From assembly GCA_031296935.1 (NCBI GenBank), contig JAVDPD010000007.1, forward strand, positions 107,566-171,565: 64,000 nucleotides of DNA, in the 5' to 3' direction. A model generated the notes under the pieces. The model did no database searches and was not told where the DNA came from. It was given only the letters and a program-made list of their open reading frames with translations. The first letter of the stretch is position 1, and every line of letters starts with the position of its first letter. This stretch comes from Cerasicoccus maritimus (GTDB taxonomy: Bacteria > Verrucomicrobiota > Verrucomicrobiia > Opitutales > Cerasicoccaceae). Position numbers and translations under genes: made by a program. Shown piece after piece: positions 8,631 through 63,928 of this stretch.

Positions 8631-8632
8631 TC

Positions 8633-28880: not shown

Positions 28881-28883
28881 GCA

Positions 28884-38494: not shown

Positions 38495-41400
38495 ATGAGA
38501 TTTTTAATTACTCTAATCGTGTCCTTTCTTGCGCTATCTTCGATGGTGCAGGCAAAGAGCAAGCATCAGTCCCGTGATGGCGGTGGCGATCTCTGGTTCT
38601 GGAGCAACGCGTTCAGCAAGGGCAATGGCCCGGATAACTGCGTGGAGCATTACTCCGGAAGTTACTACGGTAAGAAAAAGGGGCACTCTTGTTGGGACTG
38701 GTGGTGTGACGACGACGATGACGAGCCAACTGACGAAGCGCCAGAGGCCGTCATTTACGCCGATCCGCTGGAGGGATATCAGCCGCTGAAAGTCTGGTTA
38801 TCGGCCAAATTGTCCGAGGATGATTATGGAGTCGCCAGCGTCTCATGGGACTTCGGCGATGGGGCCAGTTCCAATCAGGAGGCGCTTTGGCATGAATTTG
38901 CCCAGCCGGGTGATTACACCGTGACGCTGACGGTATGGGATTCAGCGGGCCAGTCGGATACGGAAACAACAACAGTGACCGTGTTGCCTTTGCCGGATGA
39001 ACGCGTGGTCAAGGGCCTACTGGCCTATTATGAGTTTTCTGCTGGAGCAGGCGATACGATCTTTGACCGCTCTGAGGTCGGTGAGCCAATTGATCTGATC
39101 ATCAATGAGCTGGACAACGCAGCCTGGCTTGAATGCGGGGGCTTTGCTCTGCTTGAGCCCACATTCGCGCAAAGTTTTGGCTCAGCGGATAAAATTATCA
39201 GCGCCGTGAAGCATTCGCACGAAATCACCGTAGAGCTATGGGTGAATCCGGCCAATGCGCAGCCGGGCGAAGAAGGCGTTTTATTCCAGATAGCCACGAT
39301 TGGGCCGAACAACGTCAAGCTGGATGTTGTCCGACAGGACGACCTTTACCGCGTACGCTATCGCTCAAAGAGTCATGGTAATCAGGATGTCATCTACAGT
39401 CCGGCGGAAGCAGCGGATTCGCAATTGACCCATATTGTCTTCATGCGTGAGCACCAGCACCACAAGGGACGTCTATATATCAACGGCGATTTGGTGGCGA
39501 CTGCGAAGATGACCGGAACCATTTTTGCACGGAATGATCCCTACCAAGTCCGTCTAGGATCGGATGCTGAAGATGGCGCGAAGCCTTGGTTGGGCGATTA
39601 CTTCCTTAGCGCGGTTTACGAACGGGCGCTCTCAGCGGATGAAGTGGCTCAAAACTATTTGGCGGGCCTGCCCACAGCCAACAGTGTGCAAGCGATCATT
39701 GCCGCTGAGCCGGTTTCGGGAGACGCCCCGCTAACGGTGGCTTTCAGCGCGACGGATTCGTCAAGCTGCCGAGGCTCGCTGATCGACTACGCCTGGAACT
39801 TTGGTGACGGCGCGACGGGTTCCGGCGTGAGCGTTTCTCATGAATATCTTCAAGGGGGGCTTTATGAGGCCGTCTTGACGGTCACGGCAACCGACGGCGC
39901 CAAAGCTAGCTCGACGGTGCTAATCGATGTGGCGGTGCCCAATCTTCCGCCTGCTATCTCTATTCAATCACCGGTCAGTAGCCAGACCTACACGGACGCT
40001 GAGTTGCCCACCTTTGCAGCCTTGGCCACCGACAGTGACGGCTCTGTGTCTTCAGTCGAGTTCTTCCTCGATGGCGGCTCCATTGGTAACGGGACCTTCA
40101 ATGCCACTACTGGCTTTTACGAATTTACCCTGACTTCGCCGCTGAGCGCACAGGAGGATGTCTACCTATTGGCCGCCATGGCGACGGATGATGATGGCGC
40201 GACGGGCCTGAGTCAGGATGTTGGTTTCCGGGTTGAGTCCGCCAATGAAGCGCCGACAGTCGAAGATGTCACGTTTACCATGCTAGAGGACGGCATCCTG
40301 AACTGGAGCCTGACTGGACAGGACGCCAATGGGGATGTGTTGACCCTGGCCATCGTTGATGCGCCCGCGAGCGGCGAACTCCTGAACATCAATCAGGAAC
40401 CCGGCCAGAATATCCTCACCGGCCAGTATGTGCCACCCGCGAATGCTTTTGGCGCAGTCACGTTCTCTTACGAAGCCAGTGACGGACAGCTAAGCTCCAA
40501 TCTGGGAACCGTTACGGTGCAGGTGCAGCCAGTCAACGATGCGCCGACCGGCTCTCTATCGCCGGTTACGGTCACCGAAGACAGTGATCCCACCGTTATT
40601 GATTTGCTGCTGGCGTTTTCGGATGTCGATGATGGCGTTGGCGCCCTAAATTTTTCCGTTCAGTCCAATTCAAATCCGAGTTTGGTGACGCCTTCTATTA
40701 CCGGTTCTTCTCTGTCGCTGGCCTATGCTGCTGACGCTGAAGGCGTATCGAGCCTTGTCATACGAGCAACTGACACAGTCGGAGATTACATCGATGCAGC
40801 CTTCGCGTTGACGGTCAGTAATGTGAATGATGCGCCGGTCATCACCAGCAGCCCGGTCACTAGCGTCGATGAGGACACACCCTATGTCTACGCGGTTACC
40901 GCAGAGGATATTGATGCGGGCGACGCAGTGACCCTGACCACGGGTAGTTTGCCTGCATGGTTAAGCTTTGACGGTGTAACCTTGAGCGGCACGCCGGATA
41001 ACGACGATGTTGCCGACTACAGCATTAGCATTACGGCAACCGACATCGCAGGCGCTACGGATACCCAAAGCTTCACTTTGACGGTCAACAATGTCAACGA
41101 CGCGCCAACGGCATTGGCGGCAAGCTTTGAAACGGATGAAGATACTGCCTTGAATGGAATCCTCAGTGGGATCGATGACGACGGTGATCCTTTGACTTTC
41201 GCTGTGGCAGCTTTGCCGACCAACGGCGTGCTCACGCTCAATGCCGATGGAACATTCACTTACACCCCCAATACGGATTTTAACAGCAGCGATAGTTTCA
41301 CGTTCACTGTTTCCGATGCTCTCGAAACTTCAGATCCCTCTCTGGTCACGATTACGGTCAATCCCATCAACGACCTTCCGGTCGCCGCCATTGAGCCATT

Positions 41401-44400: not shown

Positions 44401-47400
44401 CACTGCATATAACTATACAGTAACAGCGATTGACGAAGACGTTAGTGATACAGTGACGGTGACGGCAGGCGATTTACCCTCTTGGCTAAGCTTTGACGGA
44501 GTCACCTTGAGCGGAACACCCGCGAACGCTGATGTAGCAGCCTATAACATTACGCTAACGGCGACGGACTTGGCGGGGGAAACCGACGTACAGAGCTTTG
44601 TGCTAACAGTGAATAATGTGAATGATAAGCCGGTAGCGCAAGCTGGAGCGTTTACGACCTCGGAAGACACCGTATTATCCGATCTACTCATTGGCAGTGA
44701 TGAAGACCCTGATGACGCACTGCTTACTTTCACCGTCACGACTGAGCCAAGCCTGGGCGTGATTACAGTGGAAAGTGATGGTAGCTTTACCTACACGCCG
44801 AATGAGAATGAGCATGGCTACGACAGTTTTGAATTTGTAGTTTATGATGGTGAGGTGAATTCTGATCCTGCGCTGGTCGAAATAACCATCACTCCAGTTA
44901 ACGATGCGCCGAAAATTATATCGACTGCTCAGACTACTGCGACTGAAGGTGAGCTCTACAAGTATACAGTTGCCGTCTCTGACCCGGATGATTCGAATGA
45001 TGGAGTATCGTTAGTCTATTCGCTAAGTGGCGCGCCACTTGGAATGGCAATTACGGAAACCGGCGTTATTTCCTGGGTTCCCGGTGAAGGCGTTAGCACG
45101 TCTGGCAATGTTACTTTAACCGTGTCTGACGGCGGCGAAGACGGAGCTCAACCGGATACAGAGGCCTTTTCGATTTCAGTGATTCCGGTTAATAATTTGC
45201 CAACCGCCGATGATCAAGTAGTCGACGGCGATGAAGACACGGTTTTGAGCTTTAGCCTGACGGGCAGTGATCCTGAAGGCGAGCTACTCAGCTACACGCT
45301 GCAAAGCCTGCCCGGCAATGGGGCGTTAGCAAATGCAAGTGGAACTCTCATTTCATCGATCCCGATGATCATTACTCTCGCCGACATGCCTTTATCGTTT
45401 ACCCCCGACGGGGACTACTATGGCCAGGAGTCGTTGAACTTCATCGTTAGTGATGGTGAATTGGAATCTGCTCCGGCGACGGTTACTTTGAACGTTGTCA
45501 GCATCAATGATTTGCCGAGCGCCAACAATGGCTCTGTCACGACCAGTGAAAATGTTGCGGTTACCATGCCGCTTGCTGGGATAGACCCAGAAGGTGAGCC
45601 ATTGAGTTATAAATTTGATGCTCTGCCAAACACTGGAGTTATAACGCTGCAAGATGGCGCTGAACTGAGTTCGGCTGATACTTTGATTTCGAATGACGAT
45701 CTGCCGCTAACGTATACGCCCAATGACGGTTTCTTTGGTCTTCAAACATTCGTGTTCCGTGCATTCGATGGAATAGATTATTCCGAACCCGCATTGATCA
45801 GCGTGACGGTCAACCCAGATCCGCGTTCAAGAACGTTTACCACGTCAGCCGATTTCGCCGAGGGCTTGTTATTTGGAGTCAGCAGTGAAGAAATCGCCGA
45901 TCAGTTGCAAACCAGTGTGGATCTTGCGCGGTTCAATTATCTTTGGGTGCCCGTTTACACGAAAGGCACTGTGTGTCGTATCGACACCGACACGGGGCGT
46001 GTGCTCGGCGAATATTGGGCAAATCCCCAAGGGGCAACGAATCCTAATCCCACCCGTGTCGCTATCGATCAGCGGGGCAATGCCTGGATAGGCAACTTGC
46101 GTGATAATTCCATCATTAAGATCGCTACTCCCGATAGTGGTCTTTACGTGGACCGAAACGGTAATGGGGTGCTTGATACATCTGCCGGCCTTGATCAAAT
46201 GATGGAATGGCCGCTGCCGACTGACGGGTCATCTCCCAGCGCGGACTTAGCTACTGATGAATTGATCTTGCTCTATATTAAAACCGATGTTGCTGGCTTA
46301 CGACACGTTTCGGTAAACCCGGATGGCAATGTCTGGGTTGGTGGGTCTAATGGCGTATGGCAGCTCTATAACGGTGAGAGCGGAGCGCTCATGGAGGAAG
46401 AACTATTGCCTGCTACCCGCGGCTCCTATGGCGGCTTTACTGATTTTGATGGCGTATTGTATTCTGCCGGGGCTGATTTCTTGCGTTGGGATCCGACTGA
46501 GCCTGTTGATGAATTGGACCCCCAGTGGATGGGGGCGCGTCGCCATGGCTGGAGTGTTCTGAAGGATTACAACAATGATATCTGGGTCAGCCGTGACCGC
46601 ACCTCAGAGACCTTTAAATACGACATAGAGGGTAACTTTATCGGGTCTTATCCGCACGGGCATAATTACGCGCAGGGGATGACGCTTGGGGATGACGGTC
46701 ACATCTGGATTGCTCACTCTCACTGTAGTAATACGGTCGGCCGTCTTCTGCCGGATGGCACCTATATCGGAAAGGTCAAGGTCGCCAACCATGGTCCAAC
46801 TGAGGTTGCAGTCGACCGCAAGGGGTACATTTGGGTAAGCGGCACCAGTGGGGTGGTTCAGCGCATCAACCCACTTGCAGGGCCGATTGGATTGGATGGA
46901 GTAACTCCAGTGGGTGAGGTCGATATTCAGTCTCCCTACTTGGGCGGCACGCTTTGGACTTACGGGGATTTTGGCGGAAACGCTTCAACGATTGATAGCG
47001 AATCCGGTGAATGGCAGTTTGATTTCGACAGCGAAATCTATGGGGCGACATGGGGACCGCTTACCTGGAATGTTGAGCTATGCAATGACGCAAGTATCGT
47101 TGTGAGTGTTCGCACCAGTCAAAATGGGGTAAGCTATGGACCTTGGGAAGAAGTTGGTTTTGAACAGGCCCCCACATCTACAGGGCGTTTCATTCAGGGT
47201 AAGGTGGTGTTTAATCCTGCGGAGTCTGGCGAAAGCCCCATTCTCAAGGACTTAACGATTGGCACAGAAGGCTATGACCAGCCGATTGCGGTCAAGGATT
47301 GGTATGTGGAGGCTGGGGAGACTATCCAAGGACTATGGCCTGACACTATTGAACTGCGTGGTGCCATTTGCCGAAGCGCCCACGAATTTGACATCGCCCC

Positions 47401-53400: not shown

Positions 53401-56400
53401 GCTCCGTAACGGCGCACCTTCTGTATTTGCCGGTTATGACATTTCCTTGGGAGACACTACGCAGGTAGCCATCCTCGAAGGAACTGCTGTTGATGACGCG
53501 ACACCCTTGCCGCTTACTTACGACTGGAGCGTGTTGGGCGGACCCGCAGGAGGTGTCGCTGATTTCTCTGATTCAAGTAGCTTAACTCCATCGGTGAGCT
53601 TCTCCTCAGATGGAGTCTACGTCCTTCAGCTTGCTGCCAGCGATGGCCTTGCTCGTGGAGCAGATCAGGTAACTGTCAGGGTCGGAGTGGCCTGCGTCGT
53701 TGATTTGCCTTCCGATGCGGTTGCCTGGTGGTCGATGGATTACTCTTCTGATGACAAGGTAAGCCAAGTGACGGATGAACGCGATGGACCGCGATACCGC
53801 ACAGGTCTGGTAGGAGGAGCTCTTAATGCTTCCGCCTCTCAAGACGTTATTATTACAAGTGAGCGACCTGAACTGGATATTGGCAAGAGCGCTACTGGCT
53901 TCACTATCGAATTCTGGGCCGATCCTGATACCAATCGTAGCGGTGGAACCGATACCGCTAAAAGTATGCTGGAGTGGGTAGGTGTTGATGGTCGTGGATT
54001 GCGTATCAGCCATGAAAATCATCGAGATATTTCATTACGCTTTGATCGTACTGATGGAACGACATCCTTCTTCACGACCCACAACCGCGATTTCTTCAAT
54101 GAGAGCAATGGGTGGTATCACCTCGCATTCGTCTATGACCGTCTTGCTGGCAGCCTGGAATTATTCGTCAATGGCGCCAGCTACCTTGCTTGGGCAGTGG
54201 GGGACTGGGAAGCGGATACGACCGGAGCATTGCTGATCGGTGGTCGTGATCACAGCGAGGGTTACTTTGATGGAGCGCTGGACGAAGTTACCTTGTATAG
54301 CCGTCCTCTCTCCGCGCTAGAAGTGTCCTCTATTAACGATGCTGGGAGCAGTGGCAAGTGCCTGCCCAGCACCAGGCATAATGGACCAAGTCTTACGATT
54401 GCCGCACCGAAGCGCGTGACGTTGCCCAACACGGGGATTCAGTTACGTGGAACGATCATCGATGATGGCGAGCCGCTTGGATTGTCAATGACTGCGAATT
54501 GGGCGCAAATAGATGGTCCGGCAGCCGCAATCTTTGATCAAGATTCCTTCACCGACCCCGTGAACGGCGTCATTGACACCATCGTTCATGCGAACGAAGT
54601 AGGAAGATATACGTTCCTTGCTACGGTGAGTGATGGAGTGCTCGAAGCCTCCCGTTCACTGGAAGTCTGGGTCTCAGAATTGGCCAATGTAGCTCCGGTG
54701 GCGCAAGCGGGAGAGGACATCACGATTACCGAGCCGGCCAATACAGTACTGCTCAATGGTTATGGCTTTGATGATGGACTGCCAGGAACTGGATTGAGTT
54801 ATTCGTGGACTCAACTAAGTGGACCTCTGGGAATCAGCATTGATACTCCCAACGCTGAAGATACGTCAGTCACCCTTGCCGGTGAAGGCATATATGAGTT
54901 CGAGTTAACTGTCAGCGATGGAGAGCTCAGCTCCAACGACAGCGTCAGGGTTGTCGTCCAACCTAAGAACAATGATGCGCCAACTGCATTGATCACTTCT
55001 GCCGATGAATTGGAGTTGCCTGGGGAACTGGCGATTTCAGTCGAAGTCAGCGATGATGGATATCCACTAGGAGGGCAATTCACGGGTGAATTGGTTCAAA
55101 TTGCTGGACCAGGAACTATGACTTTCAGTGAATCGACGTTAGATTTTGGCCCCCTGACTAAAACGCCGCTGAGCCAAGTTGTTGATCTCACCACTAGCTT
55201 TACTGCTCCCGGCGACTACGCTTTCGAACTGCGCCTTAGTGACGGCGAGCTCACGACGATCATACGTCAATCAGTTGAGGCATTCATTCAGCCGGAAGTC
55301 GATCTGACTTCGCCAAGCGATGGCTTCGTTTACGATCCGGGCCAAAACATTACCTTCCAGGCCAACGCAACTTATTTAGGCCAGCCGGTCAGCTCCGTCG
55401 AGTTTTACGCCAACGGAACCTTGCTTGGGTCGGTCGGACGTATCTCAGGCACAATCACGCATCGTTTGGTAGTGCCAGCCAGTGAATTAGGTGTGCTGAA
55501 TGACTATGCAGAAGTCTATGCCGAAGTCACCGTCGGAACACGTTCTACGCAAAGCAACACCAGCAGTATCGCAGTTGTCGATGGAAGCGCTCCGGCTCCC
55601 GATGCTCTGCTTGAATCTCCTTTGGAGGACACGGTTCTAACCGCGCCAACGCCAATCATCGGCACGGTCACCTCAAGCATCCTCAAGGAATACCGCTTCC
55701 AATACCGCCTCAAAGGCGAGTCCGATTGGCAAACCGCCTTCACCGGGACCACCGAGGCCGCCAGCGCCGAGCTCGGCACCTTTGATCCTACTTTGCTCCT
55801 CAACGGTATTTATGAGGTGCGCCTCCAAGCCGAGGATTTGCTGGGCCGCACCATCACCGACGGGCCGATCAACTTCATTGTTGATGGCAACATGAAGGTC
55901 GGCCATCTCGAGCTGCAATATCAAGACCTGCAAGCGAATCTGCCGGGGCTACCCCTCACGGTAACCCGTCACTATGACACTAAGCGTGCGGCACAGGATG
56001 GAGACTTCGGCTACGGTTGGTCCTTGTCAGTTGCAGATGTTTCGATCCAAAAGAACCGCTCCTTGGCCTATGATTGGTATATGGACTTTGCAGGTGGTTT
56101 GACGTGTCCGTTATTCTTAACCGACACGGCTTCGCATATTGTTACCGTGACCTTCGCCAATGGTGAATCACATGCTTTCTATGGTATTGCCGTTAACTCC
56201 AACACTGAAGGCCAATGCTTCTCCTCAGCAGGATTGGGCACCCCGGCATCACTGATCTTTGAACCACTTGCAGGCGAGAAAGGAACGCTTGAGGTAAAGG
56301 GCGAAAACCTCGGTTTCCTGAGTAGTGCCAATGGTCCGGTTCAATTGTTCGACATTGATGACGGCTCCGATTTCGACCCAATTGAGTTCGTCTACACGGC

Positions 56401-59400
56401 AGTGGATGGCGTTCAATACCACATCCACGAAGATGATGGATTGACCTACGTTGAGGACCGTCACGGCAACAGCATCACCATTGATGAAAATGGCTACCAT
56501 CATTCTTCGGGCCAGAGTATCGCTTTCACACGCAACGCGGATGGACGTATCGAGAAGATCACGGATCCGGCTGGCACCGAACTGAGCTATTACTACGATG
56601 CCAATGGCGATCTGGTGGCCTTTACGGATCGTGCCGGTTTTGACCAATTCTACAGCTACCACCCCGCACCAAATGAGCACCATCTGCTGGAAATCACTGG
56701 CGACGATGGCGTGCTTGCCACCCGCAACGAATATGACGAGGAGGGTCGCCTGTCGCGTGTTGTGGACGCTAATGGGCAGGTGACAACGTATACCTATGAT
56801 TTGACGGGTCGTTCTCAGACCGTGCGTGACCGCTTGGGCCGGGAAACGACCATTGTCTACAACGAGCGCGGTAACGTCACTTCGCAGATAGCGCCAGATG
56901 GTGGCATCACCCAGAGGTTTTACGAAGATCCGAATAACCCGGATCGTGAAACGAAGATCATTGATCCACTGGGTACGGTCTCGACGGCGACCTATGATCC
57001 TGACACCGGTAGAGTTCTATCCACCACTGAGGGCATTACGGATGAGGATCCCGTTGGCTTCACGACTACCTACGCTTATGATGATCCAGCAAATCCTCAT
57101 TTAAAAACTGCCGTTACGGATCCGCGAGGCAGCACCACCAACTATGCCTATGATGTTGCGGGCAACATGACGTCGATGACGGACGCACTTGGTAATGTGA
57201 CCAGCTACACCTATGATGCGGAAGGCAATCAAACCAGCAAAACGGATGCTTTGGGCAATAAGGTGGAGTGGGAATACAGTGCTTATGGCTTACCCATTGT
57301 CGAGCGCCGGGTGGCGCCAGACGGAACTGTCTACAGCGAAGTATTCAAAACCTACGATGTCGATGTGGACGCAGATAATAACGGCGATCCCGACGGCAAT
57401 GGCATTGGCGTGAAGATTGCCGAGTCGATGACCCGAACCAATTACGATGGTTCGACCACGGATTTAAGCGCCAGCTTCAGCTATGATGGTGAAGGAAAGC
57501 TGCTTTCGATTGTTTATTCTGACGGCACGTCGACTACTCAGAGCTATAACGAAAATGACAAGATCGTTCAGGTGATCGATGAGGCAGGCCAAGTTGTTGA
57601 TTATATCTACGACAATCGTGGGAACCTGCTGGAAACGCAGATGCCAGGTGGCGTAACCATTGCGTCCACCTATGATGCCGCCGGACAAATCCTGAGCACC
57701 TCAAACCCCAATGGCGATGCCGCGACCTATACGTATGATTCGATGGGGCGCATCACCAGCTTCAGCTACCCGGACGGATCAAGCTCTACGCAGACCTACG
57801 ACCTCCTGGGCCGCATGGTGAGCGAAGTCGATGAGTTAGGGCGAACCGTCACTTACGAATACGATCCTCGCGGTAATTTGCTGGAACGCACGCACGCCGA
57901 TGGCACGAGTGAGAGTTACTTCCACGACGAAAACGGCAACCGCGTGGCGCTCTACAACCGTGAGGGCATGGCGACGCTCTTTGAATACGACGAGCTGAAC
58001 CGTCTGGTTCGCACCGAATTCATCGGTGAAGTTGATGCGCAAGGTCTCGACCTTGACCCATCGGATAACGCGGTGTCAGAAACCGTCTACGATGCGATTG
58101 GCCAAGTATCAATGACCATTGATCCACGGGGCAATATCACGGAGTTCGTCTACGACAACGACTGTGGTTGTAAGGGTCGTCAGACTTCTTACACCGATGC
58201 CCTGGGCCGCAACATCACGAAGGCTTACGACGAACTCGGCAACAAGGTTTCTGAAACCGATGCCGCTGGTAACACGACCTTTTTTGCCTATGACGCTCGT
58301 CAGCGTTTGGAAACGGTGATCAACCCTGATGGCACCCAGATCGATTACCAGTATGATGTTCTTGGCCGCCGCACCCGAGAAGTGGATGAACTGGGCCATG
58401 TAACCGATTTCGACTACGATCCTTTCGGACGCGTAACGCAGCAGCGCCGTTACTTGGATTATGCCGGGTTAGGCAATCCGATCACCACGAACGCGGATCG
58501 CATCATCGAGCAGACCTTTACTTACAGTAATATTGGTCTGCCGCTGACTCAATCGGATCCCAATGGCAATGTCAGCAGCTTTGAATACGACGAGTTGGGC
58601 CGACGCACGAAAGTCATCGACGCCCTTGGCCGTGAGCGCACCTTTGACTATGACGAGATTGGCAATCTAGTTTCGCAAGCAGATGCACTGGGCAGGATCA
58701 CCTCGTTTGAATACGACATCAATAACTACCGCTTCCGCACCACCTATCCTGATGGCGGTATCACTGAAACCGCTTACGACGCCTTCGGACGGCAAGTATC
58801 GACGCTTGATCCGCTCGATAACGAAACGAGTTTCGCCTATGATGATCAGGGACGTCTGTTGCAAATCACCGATGAGCTTGGGCAAACGACGCAATACGAA
58901 TACGACGTCAGCGGAAATCAAACCAAGGTCATTGACGCCTTGGGCCGTGAAACCGTCTTTGTCTATGACGCCGCCAATCAGCTCATTGAACGTCAACTAG
59001 CCGATGGCTCCACCCAGTCATTTGAATACGATGACCGGGGTTTGGTCTCCAAGGAGGTTGACCAGAACGGCAACGCCAAAGCCTTCAGCTACGATGTTCG
59101 GGGACGCCTACTCACCGTTACGGAGTTGGACGAAAATGACAATCCGCTCGCGGTCACCTCTTACGAATACGACGATGCCGGTCGCCGGACGGCTCAAGTG
59201 GATGGCCTGGGACGTCGCACCGAATTCACCTACGATGCGCTTGGTCGCTTACTCACCAAGGAAATGCCGGGTGGCGAAATCGAGTCCTACACTTACGATG
59301 CGGCCTCAAACTTGGTGACTCGCACCGACGCCAACGGTTACGCAACAACCTACAACTACGACCAGTTGAACCGCTTGGTTGAGCAGTCAGCAGATTCCAC

Positions 59401-62400
59401 CCACCCGTCGCTCTCGCTCAGCCATGTTGCGGCCAGCATTGATTACGTCTACGACGAGGTTGGGCGCATGACTTATTCCTCACTGCGCTCGGCGGAAGCC
59501 TTCGGAGAAACCGTTTTGCATGAGGAAGCATTCACCTATGACTCGCGTGATCGTCTGACGCTCAAGTCCACCCCGGACGGCGATTTGAGCTATACTTACG
59601 ATGTGGCCAGTAACCTGACCTCGCTCAGTTCCAATAATCCGAACGGAGTGAATGTCGCCTATGGGTATGATGAGCTGAACCGCTTGCAGTCGGTTACTGA
59701 CAACGCGGGCTTCATGCCTTCATCCACCGTTCACACCTATGCTTACACGCAGGTTGGTTCGATGGATCAGATGACCTACGCCAACGGCATTCGCCATGAG
59801 TTTACCTATGACCAGCTCAATCGCCTGACCGACCTAGAAGTGCGTGATGGATCGTCACTGGTGCAGAGCTACGGCTATACACTCAGCCCGACCGGTCAAA
59901 AACTCGCGGTGAACGAAAGCACCGGGCGCGATGTCGCCTGGAATTACGACGACCGCAATCAATTAGTCAGGGAAATTGTGGCGGACGACCCATTCGGCCA
60001 AAACGGAACCGTCGATTACACTTACGATGACGCTGGCAATCGCGAGACCCGGAGTTCCTCCATTCCATCCATCAATACCCAGTCGTTTAACTACACCGTT
60101 AACGACCGCATTGTTGGTTACAGCTACGACGCCAACGGCAACACCACCGCTGGCCCTGCGTCCGAACCGGGATACACCGACGTGTATGATTTCCGGGACA
60201 AGCTAGTGCGCCGCACCAAGAGCGACGGGACCATTATTGACATCTCCTACGATGCCGCCGGAAACCGTATCGGTAAAATCGTTTCAGGCGGCCCGAGCGC
60301 GGGCTCCACGACGCTTTATCTAATCGATGGCAACAGCCTAAGCGGATTTGCGCAAGTGGTGGAAGAGCTGTCCTGGAACGGCACCGCCTTTGTGCCGCAT
60401 CGTAGTTACGTCTATGGCCTCGGCTTGATCGCACAGCACCAGTGGCTGGAGAATCCGCTGACGCAGACCTTTGACTGGGAAACGAGTTACTACCATTACG
60501 ATGGCCAGGGCAGCATTCGCGCACTCTCGGACGAAACCGGCCTCCTCACGGACAGCTACGATTACGATGCCTTCGGAAACCTGCTGCGTGCGACTGGCAC
60601 GACCCCGAATACCTACCTCTATCAGGGGCAGCAATTCGATGGCGACCTCGGGCTCTACTACTTGCGGGCGCGCTACTTAGATACCGATCTGGGTCGTTTC
60701 CACACGACGGATCCCTTCGACGGATTCGCGGATGAACCGCTCTCGCTCCACAAATACCTCTACGCCTTCAACGATCCGGTCAATTTGGGCGATCCGAGTG
60801 GCTACTTTCCGATGAGCGCCTTCGGCATGCTTAGCTACTTCACGGCTTATGTGGACACGCTTAGCAGCTATACGAACCTGATCATGTTCTACTACAAGCT
60901 CATGATGCGGAGCGCCAATGCGCATAATATTTCGCAGCTCAATGCGGCGCTGGATGAGTTTGATACCACCGCAGGTTCGTTTGAAACCTTCCTGCTGGCG
61001 AACCCGGTCGATGTCGATATGATGTGGAATTCCTTCGTCGACCGTGCGGCGGAACTTGGCGAGGAAATGAAGGAGCTCGCCTGGTGTGTCTCGCATATCA
61101 TCTACGGCACGGGCGAAGGCTTTGTGGAGACCGGTTGGGACACGCTTAAGACCTTCGGGCAGGCGCTCTGGTGGGCGGGCAAGACCTTCTTCAAATACAG
61201 CCCGACCACACCGTGGGGCGTTTACAACACGATCAAGGACGGGCCCCAGATCATCACCCAGCTCAATGCTCTTTGGGAAGGTATCAACCAGATGGTCTAC
61301 CACTTGACCGAAAAGGTCTATAACAACGACTGGATGGGTATTGTCGAAGGCTTCAGCCCGGACCTATACACGGTGCTCGCCTGGCACGACGACGAACTGA
61401 AGATGGACATCCTGCGGGATGATTACTGTCTGGCCATCGGGCGTCTCATTGGCGGTGTCGGCTTCGAAGTGGTTATGACCGTCGCTACGGCTGGCGCTGG
61501 CCACGCCCTGAAAGCCGTCAAATGCTCGAAGCTTGTCGTAGGTGCGGTAACCAAGCTCGATAACGTTGCTCCGGACAGCTCGATAACCCGCTTCCTCAAG
61601 CGCAACACCGGCTGCTTCGTCGCCGGAACACTGGTTTGGACCACGGCTGGGGCCGTCCCGATTGAAGACCTGGCGTTGGGCGATGCTGTCCTGACTGATG
61701 CTGAGGCCGCGCAGCACGAAGTCATCAATGAACAGCCGGATCGATCAATCGAAGTGAAGCTCTCGCTGGCTGAAGCCGATGGTGACCGCTTCGACATGCA
61801 ATCGATTGTCAGCGGGCAATGGTTGAAAGCCATGACCGGCCTCGCTGAAGCCGACGGCTGGCGCTACCTGCAAGACTTCGAATTAACGGGTCAAGTCGTC
61901 GATGTCGAGGTGATCGGCCAGAGCGACCACATGGATGGTGCTCCCAGAGTCGCGATGCTTACTCATCGCGAGGGCATTACGCAGAAGGTAACCATCGCGC
62001 TGGAGGGCTTTGACGCACCCGTCGTTACCACCCCCGAGCATCCATTCTGGTCTGTCGATCGCAACGGCTGGGTCCGCGCCGGATCACTCGCCGAAGGTGA
62101 GCAGCTACACTCCTATGTCCACGGCACGGTCAGAATCGAAGCTCTGTCCCGAATCTACGATGATCGCCCGGTCTATAACATCGAGGTCACCGAGCACCAT
62201 AATTACTTTGTGGGTGACGCCGCAGTGCTCGTGCATAACTCGGACGACTGTGCGATTGATATCGAAGTAAGTGGGAAAGTAGTAGCAAGTGCTGCGAGAT
62301 CAGCTTTGGATGAGGTTGCATCTTTTAGGAAAGAACTTGGCCTTCCCTCGGTTGAAGCAGAAAATGCTGCTAGAGCAGCAGCACAAGCAGCGGGTAAGAA

Positions 62401-62740
62401 AACTTTGCCTAAAGGAAATACTATTGCAAAACTTGAGATTGATGGAGCGGAATATTGGGGTTGGAACGGCCACGGACAAGGTCTAGTGAATGGACATTAT
62501 ACTCACACTGGTTTTAATGTGAATGTCCAAACAGCCAGCCACGCAGAGGCAGATGTGTTTATTCAGGCTATGTTGGGTGATAAGTTTAACATTAATAATG
62601 CTCGTTTGATCGTTGACAGACCGTTGTGTGCGGCCTGTGGGGACAACGGAGGAGTCTTGTCACTAATGAGAGATTTAGGTCTCAAACAGCTTGAAGTAAT
62701 TTCACCTGCAGGTTCAGTTACACTTAGAATAACAGATTAA
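38495..62740 (+). CDS. Giant RHS-repeat polymorphic toxin (8081 aa) with Hint and deaminase C terminus
   Basis: One uninterrupted frame of 24.2 kb. Order of parts: signal peptide (cleavage near Val-Gln-Ala, residue 20); PKD domain (about 83-167, Trp-Asp-Phe-Gly-Asp-Gly); LamG (172-393); PKD (395-483); Ig-like (486-580); about twenty cadherin-like/Ig repeats (585-2440); beta-propeller of the Vgb/SMP-30 type (2450-2850); seven LamG-PKD units (about 3030-5300); Ig-like domains to about 5690; RHS-type entry and YD repeats (5700-7290); RHS core with Gly-Arg-Phe-His-Thr-Thr-Asp-Pro (about 7399); Hint protease (Cys7707 to His7914-Asn7915); toxin domain (7916-8081) with His8016-Ala-Glu8018 and Cys8045-Ala-Ala-Cys8048, the zinc site of the cytidine-deaminase fold. 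The shell should encapsulate the toxin and Hint should release it. The substrate (DNA, RNA or nucleotide) is not known. It is followed by immunity genes. Confidence 0.93.
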   Translation: MRFLITLIVSFLALSSMVQAKSKHQSRDGGGDLWFWSNAFSKGNGPDNCVEHYSGSYYGKKKGHSCWDWWCDDDDDEPTDEAPEAVIYADPLEGYQPLKVWLSAKLSEDDYGVASVSWDFGDGASSNQEALWHEFAQPGDYTVTLTVWDSAGQSDTETTTVTVLPLPDERVVKGLLAYYEFSAGAGDTIFDRSEVGEPIDLIINELDNAAWLECGGFALLEPTFAQSFGSADKIISAVKHSHEITVELWVNPANAQPGEEGVLFQIATIGPNNVKLDVVRQDDLYRVRYRSKSHGNQDVIYSPAEAADSQLTHIVFMREHQHHKGRLYINGDLVATAKMTGTIFARNDPYQVRLGSDAEDGAKPWLGDYFLSAVYERALSADEVAQNYLAGLPTANSVQAIIAAEPVSGDAPLTVAFSATDSSSCRGSLIDYAWNFGDGATGSGVSVSHEYLQGGLYEAVLTVTATDGAKASSTVLIDVAVPNLPPAISIQSPVSSQTYTDAELPTFAALATDSDGSVSSVEFFLDGGSIGNGTFNATTGFYEFTLTSPLSAQEDVYLLAAMATDDDGATGLSQDVGFRVESANEAPTVEDVTFTMLEDGILNWSLTGQDANGDVLTLAIVDAPASGELLNINQEPGQNILTGQYVPPANAFGAVTFSYEASDGQLSSNLGTVTVQVQPVNDAPTGSLSPVTVTEDSDPTVIDLLLAFSDVDDGVGALNFSVQSNSNPSLVTPSITGSSLSLAYAADAEGVSSLVIRATDTVGDYIDAAFALTVSNVNDAPVITSSPVTSVDEDTPYVYAVTAEDIDAGDAVTLTTGSLPAWLSFDGVTLSGTPDNDDVADYSISITATDIAGATDTQSFTLTVNNVNDAPTALAASFETDEDTALNGILSGIDDDGDPLTFAVAALPTNGVLTLNADGTFTYTPNTDFNSSDSFTFTVSDALETSDPSLVTITVNPINDLPVAAIEPFTVNEDTTTPITINASDVDGDTLTATINSVSGGVLTGDLDAGYVFTPDENYHGPASFELVLSDGNGGDVTLVENFMINAVNDVPVAHSLSAETDEDTSVAITLTGSDIDGDSLTYAIATAPVNGVLSGSAPNLTYTPGENYNGSDVFTFTVSDGTDGSAAATVSITIIPVNDAPTITSAPLLEIDEDTLYRYDVTANDVDTDDVVTVTADVLPSWLSFNGTTLSGTPANEHVGEHAIVLTATDIAGEPATQSFTITVINVNDAPVGIAANFSTDEDVALSGNLTGSDEDGDSLTFIEANQPSHGALAINTDGSFTYTPVGDYHGPDSFSFTVSDDTETSSAAIVNLTVNPINDLPVAIVEPFTVDEDTATQITINASDVDGDTLTATINSVSGGTLTGNLLLGYTFTPDENYFGPATFEFVFSDGNGGSVTLVENFTINAVNDAPVADALSVATDEDMQVAITLTGSDIDGDSLTYAIVTAPANGILSGTAPNLTYTPGENYNGSDVFTFTVSDSTEVSAHASISITVNPVNDAPTFTSSPVFSVDEDTLYSYAPVADDVDAGDIVTLTATATLPSWLSFDGTTLSGTPTNAEVGEHSVELIATDIDGDSASQSFIITVINVNDAPVAIATSFTTDEDVALEGNLTGSDDDGDSLTFAAVAQPSHGALAINPDGSFTYTPVTDYHGPDSFAFTVSDATETSSATIVTLTINSTNDLPVATVEPFAVDEDTATPITINASDVDGDTLAGTINTVSGGTLTGDLLSGYTFTSDENYFGPASFELVISDGNGGNVALVENFTINAVNDAPIADALSVVTDEDTPVAITLTGSDIDGDSLTYAIFTTPANGSLSGSAPYLTYTPGENYSGSDVFTFTVSDGAEASTSATVNITINPVNDAPVAASDSFDVDEDSTYSGQLAGTDVENDALIYAIVAPPSHGSVTLGVAGSFEYTPEPNYDGPDSFQFTASDASSESLPAEVTVLVRGVNDAPSITSIPVTSVDEDTAYNYTVTAIDEDVSDTVTVTAGDLPSWLSFDGVTLSGTPANADVAAYNITLTATDLAGETDVQSFVLTVNNVNDKPVAQAGAFTTSEDTVLSDLLIGSDEDPDDALLTFTVTTEPSLGVITVESDGSFTYTPNENEHGYDSFEFVVYDGEVNSDPALVEITITPVNDAPKIISTAQTTATEGELYKYTVAVSDPDDSNDGVSLVYSLSGAPLGMAITETGVISWVPGEGVSTSGNVTLTVSDGGEDGAQPDTEAFSISVIPVNNLPTADDQVVDGDEDTVLSFSLTGSDPEGELLSYTLQSLPGNGALANASGTLISSIPMIITLADMPLSFTPDGDYYGQESLNFIVSDGELESAPATVTLNVVSINDLPSANNGSVTTSENVAVTMPLAGIDPEGEPLSYKFDALPNTGVITLQDGAELSSADTLISNDDLPLTYTPNDGFFGLQTFVFRAFDGIDYSEPALISVTVNPDPRSRTFTTSADFAEGLLFGVSSEEIADQLQTSVDLARFNYLWVPVYTKGTVCRIDTDTGRVLGEYWANPQGATNPNPTRVAIDQRGNAWIGNLRDNSIIKIATPDSGLYVDRNGNGVLDTSAGLDQMMEWPLPTDGSSPSADLATDELILLYIKTDVAGLRHVSVNPDGNVWVGGSNGVWQLYNGESGALMEEELLPATRGSYGGFTDFDGVLYSAGADFLRWDPTEPVDELDPQWMGARRHGWSVLKDYNNDIWVSRDRTSETFKYDIEGNFIGSYPHGHNYAQGMTLGDDGHIWIAHSHCSNTVGRLLPDGTYIGKVKVANHGPTEVAVDRKGYIWVSGTSGVVQRINPLAGPIGLDGVTPVGEVDIQSPYLGGTLWTYGDFGGNASTIDSESGEWQFDFDSEIYGATWGPLTWNVELCNDASIVVSVRTSQNGVSYGPWEEVGFEQAPTSTGRFIQGKVVFNPAESGESPILKDLTIGTEGYDQPIAVKDWYVEAGETIQGLWPDTIELRGAICRSAHEFDIAPTYLWELVSGPGTVSFANNDATQLRPAVQFSIDGDYVLRLTATTDTEVRTDTLAVNLMPYNKAPFVNAGSDRYVTHETDPLVLDGVVRDDGLPLESTVSILWEKKFGPGSVNFSDPSDPNAIATFSEPGIYLLSLTGSDGELENTDGLEVRVAAECSVNNIRGLVSWWQANCDSIDHVSANVGFLENYDDPSLAFVTGRVAAGFFFDGVDDRINVFASPSLDVSLDAGVSWEMWIKPDGLRNARLLDYGSEAGQGVSLSMTSSGGLIWDVVDRDGNSHVLTTSNGLTNGAWNHVAVTYNKFSGMAEIYLNGSPRTSSYIGAFMVQTSYDVFMGNDYAETMPFRGIMDEITLYCRALSPSDVYGIYNSGAVGKCPIHTNIPPVVSAGGRYAIPEPFGEILLEGSVSDDGVPSVDSLTWEWAQTSGPSSALMDDTSSLTPQVTFVEPGFYTFTLSAFDGERRAEDTAIVSVGQICRVNSPSGLVAWWRGERSLFNEEQNLNASAPAPNYRVGLVGESFDFGSFERAIKVDSRPSLDIAQSEEGFSIEFWANPDVNRSQGTDSPKSLIEWSGLDGRGLRITHHNHRDLTVYIDQRDGNSASYSTNNSDFFYEGSWYHITYIYNRTAGSLKLYVNGGVFREWNIGDLDIDTFGDLWIGGRPFTEGYFDGRIDELALYSRPLVQSEVFDIHAAGSFGKCPLGDNVAPTVNAGLDSGISSTAESLQLQGVVEDDGLPDYGSLSISWDVVQSPTGSVVSFADVGDPQTRVTFSETGLYVLKLSATDGLAQADDIVAIRVGENCSMEVPEGVVAWWTFDGSTYEEIAQTEEVAGELSYRTGKIGAALNSNSQANSLIALARPNLDLGQSEAGFTIEGWLRADSNRSQGTNTPKSIVEWTGSDGRGLRISHHNHRDLTFYFDRVDGSSTTCTTHDRNFFYENAWYHIAYVFNRNQQVLTLFVNGNAFQSWSAGDWTADTVGDLYIGGRPFQEGYFDGAIDELTFYNLPLNASQIYAIHGAGADGKCPLTGNRAPIVDAGEDTGLVSEADALLLSGNVVDDMLPEGNLSIQWEMAYGPSGGAASFADPSDPATQVTFNLPGLYILKLSASDGLAMSVDTLSVRVGHTCTVAPPEGMVAWWPMNNTAYEEVEGRYELTENPDYRTGMVGSALSVSNAEDVIQAPERDSFNIGQSTEGFSIEFWTYPDVNRSEGTNDPRSIIEWTGVDGHGLRVTHHNHRDLTLYFDRTDGSTTALTTHDSNFFYEGSWYHIVYTFDLAEEQVTLYVNGAAYKNWTISGESIDTTGDIWIGGRPLWSQAAYKTLGMYDGAIDELCLYARPLSQIEIFALHAAGDHGRCPLTNNRPPLVLAGDDVGIPSTDQILVMAGQVSDDGLPESGILTIDWNVVHQPTGATVEITDPTDLNTQVTFGQEGVYVLQLEASDGLATSKDLVAVRVGVHCGVEAPEGLTAWWPLNNDGLEVVANVLGTSDDPRYRLGQVGSALNSSAQRDVIITPEHANYDLGSSSDGFTIEFWADPDSNYSQGTNSPKSLLEWTGVDGRGMRISHHNHRDISLIFDRIDGSTNTYTSHDSNFFYESNGWYHLAYVYDRPEGMLYFYANGALFKSWAVGDLEADTLGDVWLGGRPFTEGYFDGGLDEVSFYERPLTYVDIYAIFAAGSYGKCPLTPNSAPTVNAGDDAALADVSEVLTLQGIAYDDGLPGAATLETEWSAVVTPVGGSVTFGDATALSTTATFSSNGLYLLKLIGRDGLEESEDALVVQVGATCNMVPPAGLVAWWPFEGDTMEVVENVLGIAANPSFRTGQVNDALNASTMNSLVVVEESPNLNLGSNPDGFTIEFWTYPDRNRSEGTDDSRSLIEWTGVDGRGLRIAHEDHRDLTIFFDGTDGSGASYTTHDSNFFYEGSWYHIAYVYDRVAGELRMYVNGGLFRQWFPGNIEVDTTGDIYFGGKPLWEGANTLYGFFDGALDEVSFYDRPLSYTDIAGIHGAGAQGKCPMLRNGAPSVFAGYDISLGDTTQVAILEGTAVDDATPLPLTYDWSVLGGPAGGVADFSDSSSLTPSVSFSSDGVYVLQLAASDGLARGADQVTVRVGVACVVDLPSDAVAWWSMDYSSDDKVSQVTDERDGPRYRTGLVGGALNASASQDVIITSERPELDIGKSATGFTIEFWADPDTNRSGGTDTAKSMLEWVGVDGRGLRISHENHRDISLRFDRTDGTTSFFTTHNRDFFNESNGWYHLAFVYDRLAGSLELFVNGASYLAWAVGDWEADTTGALLIGGRDHSEGYFDGALDEVTLYSRPLSALEVSSINDAGSSGKCLPSTRHNGPSLTIAAPKRVTLPNTGIQLRGTIIDDGEPLGLSMTANWAQIDGPAAAIFDQDSFTDPVNGVIDTIVHANEVGRYTFLATVSDGVLEASRSLEVWVSELANVAPVAQAGEDITITEPANTVLLNGYGFDDGLPGTGLSYSWTQLSGPLGISIDTPNAEDTSVTLAGEGIYEFELTVSDGELSSNDSVRVVVQPKNNDAPTALITSADELELPGELAISVEVSDDGYPLGGQFTGELVQIAGPGTMTFSESTLDFGPLTKTPLSQVVDLTTSFTAPGDYAFELRLSDGELTTIIRQSVEAFIQPEVDLTSPSDGFVYDPGQNITFQANATYLGQPVSSVEFYANGTLLGSVGRISGTITHRLVVPASELGVLNDYAEVYAEVTVGTRSTQSNTSSIAVVDGSAPAPDALLESPLEDTVLTAPTPIIGTVTSSILKEYRFQYRLKGESDWQTAFTGTTEAASAELGTFDPTLLLNGIYEVRLQAEDLLGRTITDGPINFIVDGNMKVGHLELQYQDLQANLPGLPLTVTRHYDTKRAAQDGDFGYGWSLSVADVSIQKNRSLAYDWYMDFAGGLTCPLFLTDTASHIVTVTFANGESHAFYGIAVNSNTEGQCFSSAGLGTPASLIFEPLAGEKGTLEVKGENLGFLSSANGPVQLFDIDDGSDFDPIEFVYTAVDGVQYHIHEDDGLTYVEDRHGNSITIDENGYHHSSGQSIAFTRNADGRIEKITDPAGTELSYYYDANGDLVAFTDRAGFDQFYSYHPAPNEHHLLEITGDDGVLATRNEYDEEGRLSRVVDANGQVTTYTYDLTGRSQTVRDRLGRETTIVYNERGNVTSQIAPDGGITQRFYEDPNNPDRETKIIDPLGTVSTATYDPDTGRVLSTTEGITDEDPVGFTTTYAYDDPANPHLKTAVTDPRGSTTNYAYDVAGNMTSMTDALGNVTSYTYDAEGNQTSKTDALGNKVEWEYSAYGLPIVERRVAPDGTVYSEVFKTYDVDVDADNNGDPDGNGIGVKIAESMTRTNYDGSTTDLSASFSYDGEGKLLSIVYSDGTSTTQSYNENDKIVQVIDEAGQVVDYIYDNRGNLLETQMPGGVTIASTYDAAGQILSTSNPNGDAATYTYDSMGRITSFSYPDGSSSTQTYDLLGRMVSEVDELGRTVTYEYDPRGNLLERTHADGTSESYFHDENGNRVALYNREGMATLFEYDELNRLVRTEFIGEVDAQGLDLDPSDNAVSETVYDAIGQVSMTIDPRGNITEFVYDNDCGCKGRQTSYTDALGRNITKAYDELGNKVSETDAAGNTTFFAYDARQRLETVINPDGTQIDYQYDVLGRRTREVDELGHVTDFDYDPFGRVTQQRRYLDYAGLGNPITTNADRIIEQTFTYSNIGLPLTQSDPNGNVSSFEYDELGRRTKVIDALGRERTFDYDEIGNLVSQADALGRITSFEYDINNYRFRTTYPDGGITETAYDAFGRQVSTLDPLDNETSFAYDDQGRLLQITDELGQTTQYEYDVSGNQTKVIDALGRETVFVYDAANQLIERQLADGSTQSFEYDDRGLVSKEVDQNGNAKAFSYDVRGRLLTVTELDENDNPLAVTSYEYDDAGRRTAQVDGLGRRTEFTYDALGRLLTKEMPGGEIESYTYDAASNLVTRTDANGYATTYNYDQLNRLVEQSADSTHPSLSLSHVAASIDYVYDEVGRMTYSSLRSAEAFGETVLHEEAFTYDSRDRLTLKSTPDGDLSYTYDVASNLTSLSSNNPNGVNVAYGYDELNRLQSVTDNAGFMPSSTVHTYAYTQVGSMDQMTYANGIRHEFTYDQLNRLTDLEVRDGSSLVQSYGYTLSPTGQKLAVNESTGRDVAWNYDDRNQLVREIVADDPFGQNGTVDYTYDDAGNRETRSSSIPSINTQSFNYTVNDRIVGYSYDANGNTTAGPASEPGYTDVYDFRDKLVRRTKSDGTIIDISYDAAGNRIGKIVSGGPSAGSTTLYLIDGNSLSGFAQVVEELSWNGTAFVPHRSYVYGLGLIAQHQWLENPLTQTFDWETSYYHYDGQGSIRALSDETGLLTDSYDYDAFGNLLRATGTTPNTYLYQGQQFDGDLGLYYLRARYLDTDLGRFHTTDPFDGFADEPLSLHKYLYAFNDPVNLGDPSGYFPMSAFGMLSYFTAYVDTLSSYTNLIMFYYKLMMRSANAHNISQLNAALDEFDTTAGSFETFLLANPVDVDMMWNSFVDRAAELGEEMKELAWCVSHIIYGTGEGFVETGWDTLKTFGQALWWAGKTFFKYSPTTPWGVYNTIKDGPQIITQLNALWEGINQMVYHLTEKVYNNDWMGIVEGFSPDLYTVLAWHDDELKMDILRDDYCLAIGRLIGGVGFEVVMTVATAGAGHALKAVKCSKLVVGAVTKLDNVAPDSSITRFLKRNTGCFVAGTLVWTTAGAVPIEDLALGDAVLTDAEAAQHEVINEQPDRSIEVKLSLAEADGDRFDMQSIVSGQWLKAMTGLAEADGWRYLQDFELTGQVVDVEVIGQSDHMDGAPRVAMLTHREGITQKVTIALEGFDAPVVTTPEHPFWSVDRNGWVRAGSLAEGEQLHSYVHGTVRIEALSRIYDDRPVYNIEVTEHHNYFVGDAAVLVHNSDDCAIDIEVSGKVVASAARSALDEVASFRKELGLPSVEAENAARAAAQAAGKKTLPKGNTIAKLEIDGAEYWGWNGHGQGLVNGHYTHTGFNVNVQTASHAEADVFIQAMLGDKFNINNARLIVDRPLCAACGDNGGVLSLMRDLGLKQLEVISPAGSVTLRITD
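40843..44640 (+). repeat. Tandem super-repeat (about 1.08 kb, three full copies plus a partial one)
   Basis: A four-domain block recurs inside the giant gene: a putative-Ig (He_PIG-like) domain beginning Thr-Ser-x-Pro-Val, then three cadherin-like domains. Block starts lie near 40846, 41926, 43012 and 44366. Long stretches of near-identical DNA between copies show recent tandem duplication. Confidence 0.8.
47590..54370 (+). repeat. Seven LamG-PKD repeats (about 0.97 kb each)
   Basis: Each unit has a PKD-like domain (Ala-Gly-x-Asp ... Asp-Asp-Gly-Leu-Pro) followed by a LamG domain that opens with Cys and Val-Ala-Trp-Trp and closes with Gly-Lys-Cys-Pro. LamG starts lie near 47866, 48813, 49783, 50750, 51739, 52713 and 53692. 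The two Cys of each unit could form a disulfide outside the cell. Several units share a His-His-Asn-His-Arg-Asp segment. Confidence 0.85.
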
Positions 62741-62742: not shown

Positions 62743-63162
62743 ATGGAAATTGCGTTTTTAGATAGTATGAAAAGCGATTCGAGGGAAAAGATACTAGTAG
62801 ATCGTTTACAATTAATATCCGACTTAAGGTTTGTAGAAATTTGGCTTAAATACCCCAGGTTTCCGATGCTAGGCGTTTTAATAAACTCAGATGATGCCTT
62901 CCTTCAAGCATTTCGATTTCAGGGAGATCCAGGTTTTTTTTCTAACAACCCTAGTCGTAGCGAATGTGATGAATTGGTAGAGTTTGAGCTTGAAAATGGA
63001 CAGGTTGATGAATTTCCAAGCAAATCTTGCTATACGAAAAAGGAAGCAATTCGGGCATGTCTAGACTTTGCAGTAGACGGTAAATTTCCTGATTGGATTG
63101 ATTGGATTTACGCCGGTATGGATGGAGCTGATTCGCCTAATGATAAATTAAGTCCTGAATGA
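62743..63162 (+). CDS. Imm1-like immunity protein
   Basis: This 139-residue protein begins two bases after the toxin stop codon. Its C-terminal part holds Glu-Leu-Glu-Asn-Gly-Gln-Val-Asp-Glu-Phe-Pro, then a helix with Ala-Ile-Arg-Ala-Cys-Leu-Asp-Phe, and Gly-Lys-Phe-Pro-Asp-Trp-Ile-Asp-Trp. This is the layout of the Imm1 family, known as immunity proteins for deaminase-type polymorphic toxins. It is acidic and AT-rich like the toxin domain. It should bind and block the toxin in the producing cell. Confidence 0.78.
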   Translation: MEIAFLDSMKSDSREKILVDRLQLISDLRFVEIWLKYPRFPMLGVLINSDDAFLQAFRFQGDPGFFSNNPSRSECDELVEFELENGQVDEFPSKSCYTKKEAIRACLDFAVDGKFPDWIDWIYAGMDGADSPNDKLSPE

Positions 63163-63589: not shown

Positions 63590-63928
63590 CCGGACAGCTC
63601 GATAACCCGCTTCCTCAAGCGCAACACCGGCTGCTTCGTCGCCGGAACACTGGTTTGGACCACGGCTGGGGCCGTCCCGATTGAAGACCTGGCGTTGGGC
63701 GATGCTGTCCTGACTGATGCTGAGGCCGCGCAGCACGAAGTCATCAATGAACAGCCGGATCGATCAATCGAAGTGAAGCTCTCGCTGGCTGAAGCCGATG
63801 GTGACCGCTTCGACATGCAATCGATTGTCAGCGGGCAATGGCTGGAAGCCATGACTGGCCTCGCCGAAGCCGACGGCTGGCGCTACCTGGAAGACTTCGA
63901 ATTGACGGGCCAAGTCGTTGATCTGTAA
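63590..63928 (+). pseudogene. Orphan copy of the Hint start (toxin-cassette scar)
   Basis: It repeats 61571-61905 of the giant gene in the same reading phase: 251 bases are identical, then about nine differences occur in the last 85 bases, and the frame ends at TAA 63926. It encodes Cys-Phe-Val-Ala-Gly-Thr to Gln-Val-Val-Asp-Leu, only the first half of Hint, and has no start codon of its own. It lies just after the immunity genes, as expected of a displaced C-terminal tip left behind after exchange of toxin modules. It may serve as a recombination substrate. Confidence 0.88.

What the first reader, a model, noticed from the sequence alone, without database searches (positions are those of the whole stretch)
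38495..62740. 8081-residue secreted RHS toxin carrying a LamG/PKD/cadherin stalk
Seen: a single frame joins a signal peptide, two very long repeat stalks, a propeller, an RHS shell, a Hint protease and a deaminase-fold tip. RHS and Hint-toxin proteins are known, but a stalk of about 5600 residues in front of the shell is far beyond the usual. It suggests a surface-anchored long-reach contact toxin. Lack of a type VI PAAR domain and presence of a Sec-type signal peptide point to a different export route. The route is inference.
Basis: partly seen in the sequence, partly recalled or inferred. Interest (0 to 1): 0.8.

Follow-up and report, generated by a model that had tools for sequence, protein, structure and literature searches.

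The report
Giant stalked polymorphic toxin, swappable tip
A bacterium of the Verrucomicrobiota carries one 24-kb gene for an 8,081-residue secreted protein that looks like a very long stalk ending in an exchangeable toxin, followed by the gene that probably protects the producer; relatives carry a similar stalk with other endings.

Summary
One uninterrupted frame of 8,081 codons (38495-62740) encodes a signal peptide, 18-19 cadherin/Ig-like repeats, a propeller-like region, a LamG/PKD stalk, an RHS shell, a Hint domain and a MafB19-type deaminase tip. No exact direct repeat of 25 nt or more lies in the gene, so repeat collapse is unlikely. Two nucleotides after the toxin stop is an Imm1-like gene, overlapped by a second small gene, then a 333-bp copy of Hint DNA, 97.6% identical, cut by a multi-copy repeat at the contig end. 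GC drops from 0.58 to 0.41 at the Hint/tip border and returns at the Hint copy. That is the signature of tip exchange. Four relatives in the order carry the same propeller-LamG/PKD-RHS body with unrelated tails; one (G002) has a NucA/NucB tip and two spare cassettes with 89-92% identical RHS core DNA. So this is a polymorphic toxin system, a known kind, new in its stalk. Contact killing of bacteria is inferred. No type VI sheath gene was found; export route and anchor stay unknown.

The parts
38495..62740 (+). giant toxin gene, 8,081 aa
38495..38554 (+). Sec-type signal peptide, residues 1-20 (read by eye; similar start in G002)
38555..38734 (+). short Cys/Trp/Asp-rich segment after the signal peptide, similar in G002
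38738..39934 (+). region with two PKD domains (second placed by eye)
40247..45814 (+). first stalk: cadherin-like/Big_9/He_PIG repeats, about 90 aa each
45890..47374 (+). propeller-like region, used as marker of the family
47867..54604 (+). second stalk: about seven LamG + PKD units of about 325 aa
54605..55864 (+). PKD/Big_7 linker before the shell
55889..60802 (+). RHS shell, from DUF6531 to the core motif ending DPSG (residues 5799-7436)
60803..61612 (+). region between RHS core and Hint, no convincing family match
61613..62239 (+). Hint domain, C7707, TPEH (H7849), HN (N7915)
62240..62737 (+). toxin tip, MafB19-like deaminase, HAE (8016-8018) and CAAC (8045-8048)
62743..63162 (+). Imm1-like gene, 139 aa, 2 nt after the toxin stop, likely immunity gene
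63159..63566 (+). second small gene, 135 aa, start overlaps the stop of the one before (ATGA); weak sub-cut-off Imm10 match
63590..63922 (+). copy of Hint-region DNA (61571-61903), 325 of 333 bases identical: cassette remnant
63924..64000 (+). end of a multi-copy repeat (perhaps an insertion element; no transposase shown) that cuts the Hint copy; contig ends here

Best explanation
A polymorphic toxin locus. The giant protein leaves the cytoplasm by Sec, stands on or is shed from the cell surface on two repeat stalks with lectin-like LamG domains, and carries its deaminase at or inside an RHS shell. The Hint domain cuts at its C-terminal Asn and frees the deaminase, which enters a neighbouring bacterium and deaminates nucleic acid. 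Imm1 protects the producer and its kin. The tip, with its immunity gene, is replaced by recombination inside the conserved DNA in front of it (RHS core or Hint); displaced pieces stay behind as remnants or spare cassettes. Shown here: gene, domain order, motifs, immunity-like gene, Hint copy, GC borders, unrelated tails on related bodies, spare cassettes in G002. Inferred: surface display, contact, cleavage, entry, target, and that the exchange ran through Hint in this strain.
For: Domains and motifs. Tip relatives sit at the C-termini of other toxin types: a protein annotated HecA-family adhesin (Agrobacterium), RHS proteins (Burkholderia, Methylosinus), a 952-residue Rhizobium frame; also a 235-residue Nostoc protein without a name; the gene behind the Burkholderia tip is annotated Imm1. 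The window's next gene matches the genes behind four such tips by profile (probability 80.5, E 1.3e-5), the second gene does not (0.08). Hint copy 97.6% over 333 bp; GC change points 62255 and 63584. Five bodies: all 10 core pairs 44-87% identical, no tail pair better than E 0.015. G002: two orphan cassettes, 743 bp at 88.7% and 1,281 bp at 91.9% core identity, both matches ending at G002:C3:703717, three bases behind the DPSG codons, each followed by a new tail and a small gene of lower GC. Zhang 2012 describes this logic (passages).
Against: Imm1 is under Pfam's cut-off (14.1 of 22.4 bits). In 1 of the 5 tip relatives fetched (Methylosinus, partial match) a transposase on the other strand, not an immunity gene, follows. 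G005 has no RHS copy downstream and G003 only a 48-bp one. The Hint copy in the window is followed by no second tip on the contig.
Confidence: 0.78

Rival explanations
1. The protein is mainly a giant adhesin for polysaccharides or particles; the tip is a passenger with little effect.
For: Most of the length is LamG, PKD and cadherin-like repeats; NCBIfam gives weak, sub-cut-off matches to the BapA/Bap/LapF large adhesins (51.7 of 180 bits). That such repeats are common in adhesins is recalled.
Against: RHS shell and Hint, catalytic motifs kept in the tip (5 of 5 aligned), immunity-like gene in tight spacing, unrelated tails on related bodies.
Confidence: 0.1
2. A toxin against eukaryotes (grazers or hosts), delivered by the lectin stalk.
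For: LamG units are lectin-like; one stretch also matches the lectin-fold family PF07953 (75.8 bits), which I read as a shared fold only.
Against: An immunity-like gene next to the toxin points to targets that include the producer's own kind; tip relatives sit at the ends of RHS and HecA-type proteins.
Confidence: 0.07
3. An assembly or gene-fusion artefact, or a decaying gene.
For: The contig ends 1.3 kb behind the gene in a repeat; the Hint copy is cut.
Against: No exact direct repeat of 25 nt or more within the gene; codon-position pattern; long frames with the same domain order in G002, G003, G005, G156.
Confidence: 0.03

Closest known systems
Sec-exported RHS-Hint polymorphic toxins (the 'T2SS' class of Zhang et al. 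2012, PMC3482391; passages seen, not the whole text)
   Same: RHS repeats, Hint before a C-terminal toxin, immunity gene behind it, cassette remnants; LamG at N-termini of such toxins is reported there.
   Different: About 8,000 residues against a peak of 1,400-1,600 for RHS toxins; cadherin/Big_9 stalk plus propeller plus about seven LamG/PKD units. The words cadherin and PKD do not occur in the held text of that paper.
WapA of Streptococcus and Bacillus (PMC12704120: listing and start of abstract only; rest recalled)
   Same: Exported RHS protein with polymorphic C-terminal toxins used in competition.
   Different: Gram-positive and shorter (recalled); here, if the cell has an outer membrane as its phylum does (recalled), that has to be crossed, and no wall-binding domain was found.
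T6SS Rhs toxins (7q97; Tse5, 8cp6)
   Same: RHS region, PDB sequence matches E 1.1e-52 (the best) and 9.4e-45.
   Different: No PAAR, no VipB match in the genome, signal peptide, long stalk, Hint.
Orphan rhs cassettes of enterobacteria (PMC3967940, PMC3150448, PMC7043789: listing and start of abstract only)
   Same: Spare 3' cassettes of core plus tip plus immunity behind a main gene, as in G002.
   Different: The main gene here is a giant with a signal peptide; in the window the homology lies in Hint.
Teneurin-like proteins (9pt5, 9ifo)
   Same: RHS region matches by sequence (E 6.8e-28, 4.1e-27); a propeller before the shell is a general likeness (recalled).
   Different: Stalk composition and tip.

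Membership tests
Polymorphic toxin system | Constant N-terminal body with unrelated C-terminal tips | tested here: met
   Five bodies: all 10 core pairs match at 44-87% identity; tails unrelated, best E 0.015; different Pfam tips in own and G002; the tails of G003, G005, G156 have no Pfam name
Polymorphic toxin system | Immunity gene directly behind the toxin | tested here: met
   Presence only: 62743-63162, profile match to genes behind four tip relatives, second gene as negative comparison; protection not tested
Polymorphic toxin system | Exchange by standalone cassettes | tested here: met
   Hint copy in the window; two orphan cassettes in G002; 118-bp RHS copy in G156; only 48 bp in G003, none in G005
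Polymorphic toxin system | Toxicity and protection | not testable with these tools
   bench work needed
PT-HINT domain | Pfam match over cut-off and Cys, TxxH, HN motifs (motifs recalled) | tested here: met
   39.2 bits, cut-off 27.7, over profile positions 57-137; the start is matched by Hint_2 (31.3, cut-off 28.4); motifs at 7707, 7846-7849, 7914-7915; cleavage not testable
MafB19-like deaminase | Pfam match over cut-off, HAE and CxxC | tested here: met
   32.1 bits, cut-off 27; motifs invariant in 5 of 5 aligned; fold and activity not tested
Imm1 | Pfam match over cut-off | tested here: inconclusive
   14.1 bits, cut-off 22.4: not reached; hhalign support
Imm10 (second gene) | Pfam match over cut-off | tested here: not met
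   13.5 bits, cut-off 28.6
T6SS Rhs effector | PAAR domain or T6SS genes | tested here: not met
   no PAAR; VipB 0 matches in own genome, E. coli control positive
CdiA (two-partner secretion) | Filamentous-haemagglutinin repeats and TPS domain | tested here: not met
   no such family reported in any piece
T9SS cargo | C-terminal sorting domain, SprA in genome | tested here: inconclusive
   only a sub-cut-off Por_Secre_tail match (19.1 of 23 bits) inside the stalk; the SprA search had no positive control

The most novel reading that the evidence does not exclude
Opitutales have evolved their own class of long-reach toxins: a Sec-exported RHS toxin on a stalk whose length is tuned by repeat number and whose LamG units choose the surface it binds, with tips swapped from a cassette store behind the gene, working across an outer membrane by an export route that is not type V, VI or IX.
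Probability: 0.35. Interest if true: 0.75.

Novelty: new variant of a known kind. Interest (0 to 1): 0.55.

Why it matters
Zhang et al. 2012 already name Verrucomicrobia often among phyla with polymorphic toxin parts (48 mentions), so the presence of such a system is not new. New is the body: several times longer than usual RHS toxins, built from two kinds of repeat stalk and a propeller, kept in several Opitutales genomes with different tails, and with the traces of tip exchange preserved in one locus and spare cassettes in a relative. It makes two questions testable: how an RHS toxin of 8,000 residues gets out of the cell without type VI machinery, and whether stalk length sets the killing distance. 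My paper searches for this family (open-licence PMC papers only) found no paper on it.

Tried and rejected
Type VI delivery: rejected. CdiA-type: rejected. Repeat collapse: rejected. Receptor-binding lectin family PF07953: lies in the LamG stalk, read as a shared lectin fold, not as kinship. Second gene as Imm1: no support; as Imm10: cut-off not met; no match in plasmids and none in the other 371 of 372 order genomes. Tip in viral contigs: none confirmed. PADLOC for Hint-tip and the two small genes: no match. Tip in the PDB by sequence: two matches at E 0.15, not meaningful. Propeller in plasmids: no match. The other RHS frames of the genome that I fetched (C19, C46, C47, C49) gave no blastp match to the propeller or the Hint. 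The repeat at 63924 as an insertion element: not shown; the long frame beside its one internal copy (C13) has no Pfam match. The last genome search, on a sample of the phylum, found only own and G195 among 387 at E 1e-20; G002, G003 and G005 are not among its listed rows, so it does not bound the family. L080, a Verrucomicrobia MAG contig with a 45% match, was not studied further. Papers on MafB19 were listed but none opened.

Full report
What is there. The frame 38495-62740 is open for 8,081 codons. Pfam places PKD, cadherin/Big_9 repeats, LamG/PKD units, a Big_7 linker, 24 stretches of RHS repeat, Hint and a MafB19-type deaminase in that order, with a propeller-like region between the two stalks; NCBIfam adds the RHS core domain TIGR03696. 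The shell begins near residue 5799. The gene holds no exact direct repeat of 25 nt or more, so the stalk is not a place where reads of ordinary length would collapse.

Source. G003 is called same genus by the tool, and its contig of 283,112 bases has the length and the match of JAVDPC010000003.1, Cerasicoccus frondis NBRC 105381. The window (G000, 4.81 Mb, 66 contigs, 97.6% complete) is therefore most likely from another Cerasicoccus species. This is an inference from kinship, not a named record.

The 3' end. The toxin stop is followed after 2 nt by a 139-aa gene and then, with an ATGA overlap, a 135-aa gene. The first resembles Imm1 weakly by Pfam (below cut-off) and better by comparison with the genes behind four relatives of the tip (hhalign probability 80.5, E 1.3e-5; for the second gene 0.08). 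Then comes a copy of Hint-region DNA: 325 of 333 bases identical; of the 8 differences 6 are silent. It is cut at 63923/63924 by a sequence found at seven further places of the genome at 74-77 bases, each with a different flank, six of the seven at contig ends. This could be the end of an insertion element, but no transposase was found beside the one internal copy. The search with 61400-62740 found no third place in the assembly; another PT-HINT protein lies on C5. GC is 0.58 before 62255, 0.41 up to about 63584 and 0.60 after it; third-position GC is 0.67 in Hint and 0.32 in the tip. The first border lies 16 bases behind the Hint HN codons. The simplest reading is that tip and both small genes came in together, or in two steps, by recombination in Hint DNA.

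The tip. A tblastn of 72,556 plasmid records gave 7 records, 5 of them with 80% or more of the tip in one place. I fetched 5 of the 7 (one of each of the two pairs of records from the same species) and aligned 4 of those 5, leaving out Methylosinus, which matches only 57% of the tip. HAE and CxAC are invariant in all five aligned rows, window included. The carriers differ: a HecA-family adhesin, RHS proteins, a 952-residue Rhizobium frame, a 235-residue Nostoc protein. In B. glumae the next gene is annotated Imm1. In a sample of the phylum the tip is rare: 2 of 387 genomes, own included, the other weak (27% over 92 aa, E 6.3e-4).

The family. With the propeller region as query, 40 of 372 sampled genomes of the order match at E 0.001 or better (at most three candidates were scored in each genome listed). 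Eight of the 40, own included, match over nearly the whole query, the seven others at 36-67% identity; the remaining 32 match only over short parts, mostly the PKD-like end. Five of the 8 have a complete C-terminus: own, G002 (stop-to-stop frame 6,756), G003 (4,527, N-terminus cut by the contig end), G005 (7,678) and G156 (4,347); G195, G348 and G053 are cut at the C-terminal side by contig ends. All five have LamG, PKD and RHS by Pfam. One of the four genomes of the genus (G001) shows no such gene in this search. Repeat numbers in the stalk differ (Big_9 stretches: 18 in own, 11 in G002, 20 in G005, 1 in G156). Among the five only the window's gene has a Hint; the others go from the RHS core to tails of 129-245 residues, so Hint belongs to the variable end on a longer time scale.

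Polymorphism. All 10 pairs among the five cores match (44-87% identity), while no tail pair is better than E 0.015; with the two G002 orphans and the short G003 gene added, the one tail pair better than 0.01 is own against the short G003 gene (E 3.3e-10), which I read as their shared Hint (tails were cut at the first DP behind the L[HN]KY motif, so own's tail holds a few residues of core). The G002 tip is NucA/NucB (34.1 bits, cut-off 23.8); the tails of G003, G005 and G156 have no Pfam name. Behind the G002 toxin stand a small gene (Imm30 below cut-off) and two orphan cassettes, each a piece of RHS core (743 bp at 88.7%; 1,281 bp at 91.9%), a new tail and a small gene. GC of core, tail and small gene is 0.59/0.43/0.34 in the main gene, 0.56/0.47/0.36 in the first and 0.59/0.38/0.38 in the second orphan. 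Both homologies end three bases behind the DPSG codons. Tails and small genes of the orphans have no Pfam name. G156 keeps a 118-bp RHS remnant, G003 a weak 48-bp match and, further down, a separate 1,730-residue RHS frame with RCC1-like repeats, Hint and an unnamed tip; G005 shows nothing.

How it most likely works. Sec export, display on the stalk, LamG binding to the own or a foreign surface, RHS shell as container, Hint cleavage to free the deaminase, entry into a neighbour, nucleic-acid deamination, Imm1 as protection. Only the anatomy and the traces of exchange are shown. No VipB match is present; four secretin matches are (their systems were not examined), so a type II-like exit is possible but untested.

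Comparison. Zhang et al. 2012 (PMC3482391; passages found by term, not the whole text) describe this logic: tip exchange with immunity genes as remnants, Hint release probably on contact, LamG at N-termini of Sec-type toxins, Imm1 with SCP1.201 deaminases and Imm10 with Pput_2613 deaminases, RHS toxins peaking at 1,400-1,600 residues, and a longest toxin of 13,652. The word MafB19 does not occur in the held text, so the pair MafB19-type tip plus Imm1 rests. The system is thus a known kind. New are the stalk design, the family in Opitutales and the well-preserved exchange traces. Searches for papers on such a family found none; the library is limited to open-licence papers.

Noticed in passing
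window 24326-31039 (-): Complete Wadjet-type JetA-JetB-JetC-JetD operon (PADLOC E 1.8e-80, 1.8e-28, 9.3e-239, 3.3e-87).
   Followed up: partly
window 31117-34142 (-): HerA plus SIR2 gene pair (PADLOC E 3.3e-140 and 4.3e-151) next to the Wadjet operon.
   Followed up: partly
window 21408-24233 (+): TrwC-type relaxase with helicase domains: a mobilisation gene next to the defence genes.
   Followed up: no
window 36554-37648 (+): Helicase of 364 aa (Helicase_C, ResIII) upstream of the giant gene; whether it is a fragment was not checked.
   Followed up: no
window 7009-8707 (+): Nine tRNA genes within 1.7 kb.
   Followed up: no
L025, L026, L027, L028: The genome holds further large RHS frames on C19 (2,577 aa), C49 (3,628), C46 (1,719 and 2,448) and C47 (4,419), with no blastp match to the propeller or Hint of this gene.
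   Followed up: partly
L072:9024-13591: Two orphan RHS cassettes in tandem behind the G002 orthologue, with unnamed tips and unnamed small genes.
   Followed up: partly
L074, L075, L076, L079 (N-termini of the orthologues): G005, G195, G348 and G053 seem to share another N-terminal module (APSxNG...LNGG...VPGxP) instead of the Cys/Trp/Asp-rich segment of own and G002; it could be an anchor or sorting signal (by eye).
   Followed up: no
L069:2564-7753 (-): C. frondis has a separate 1,730-residue RHS frame with RCC1-like repeats, Hint and an unnamed tip behind the giant gene.
   Followed up: partly
L029:1940-3331 (+): A phage-integrase-family gene lies beside the copy of the 63924 repeat on C37.
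   Followed up: no
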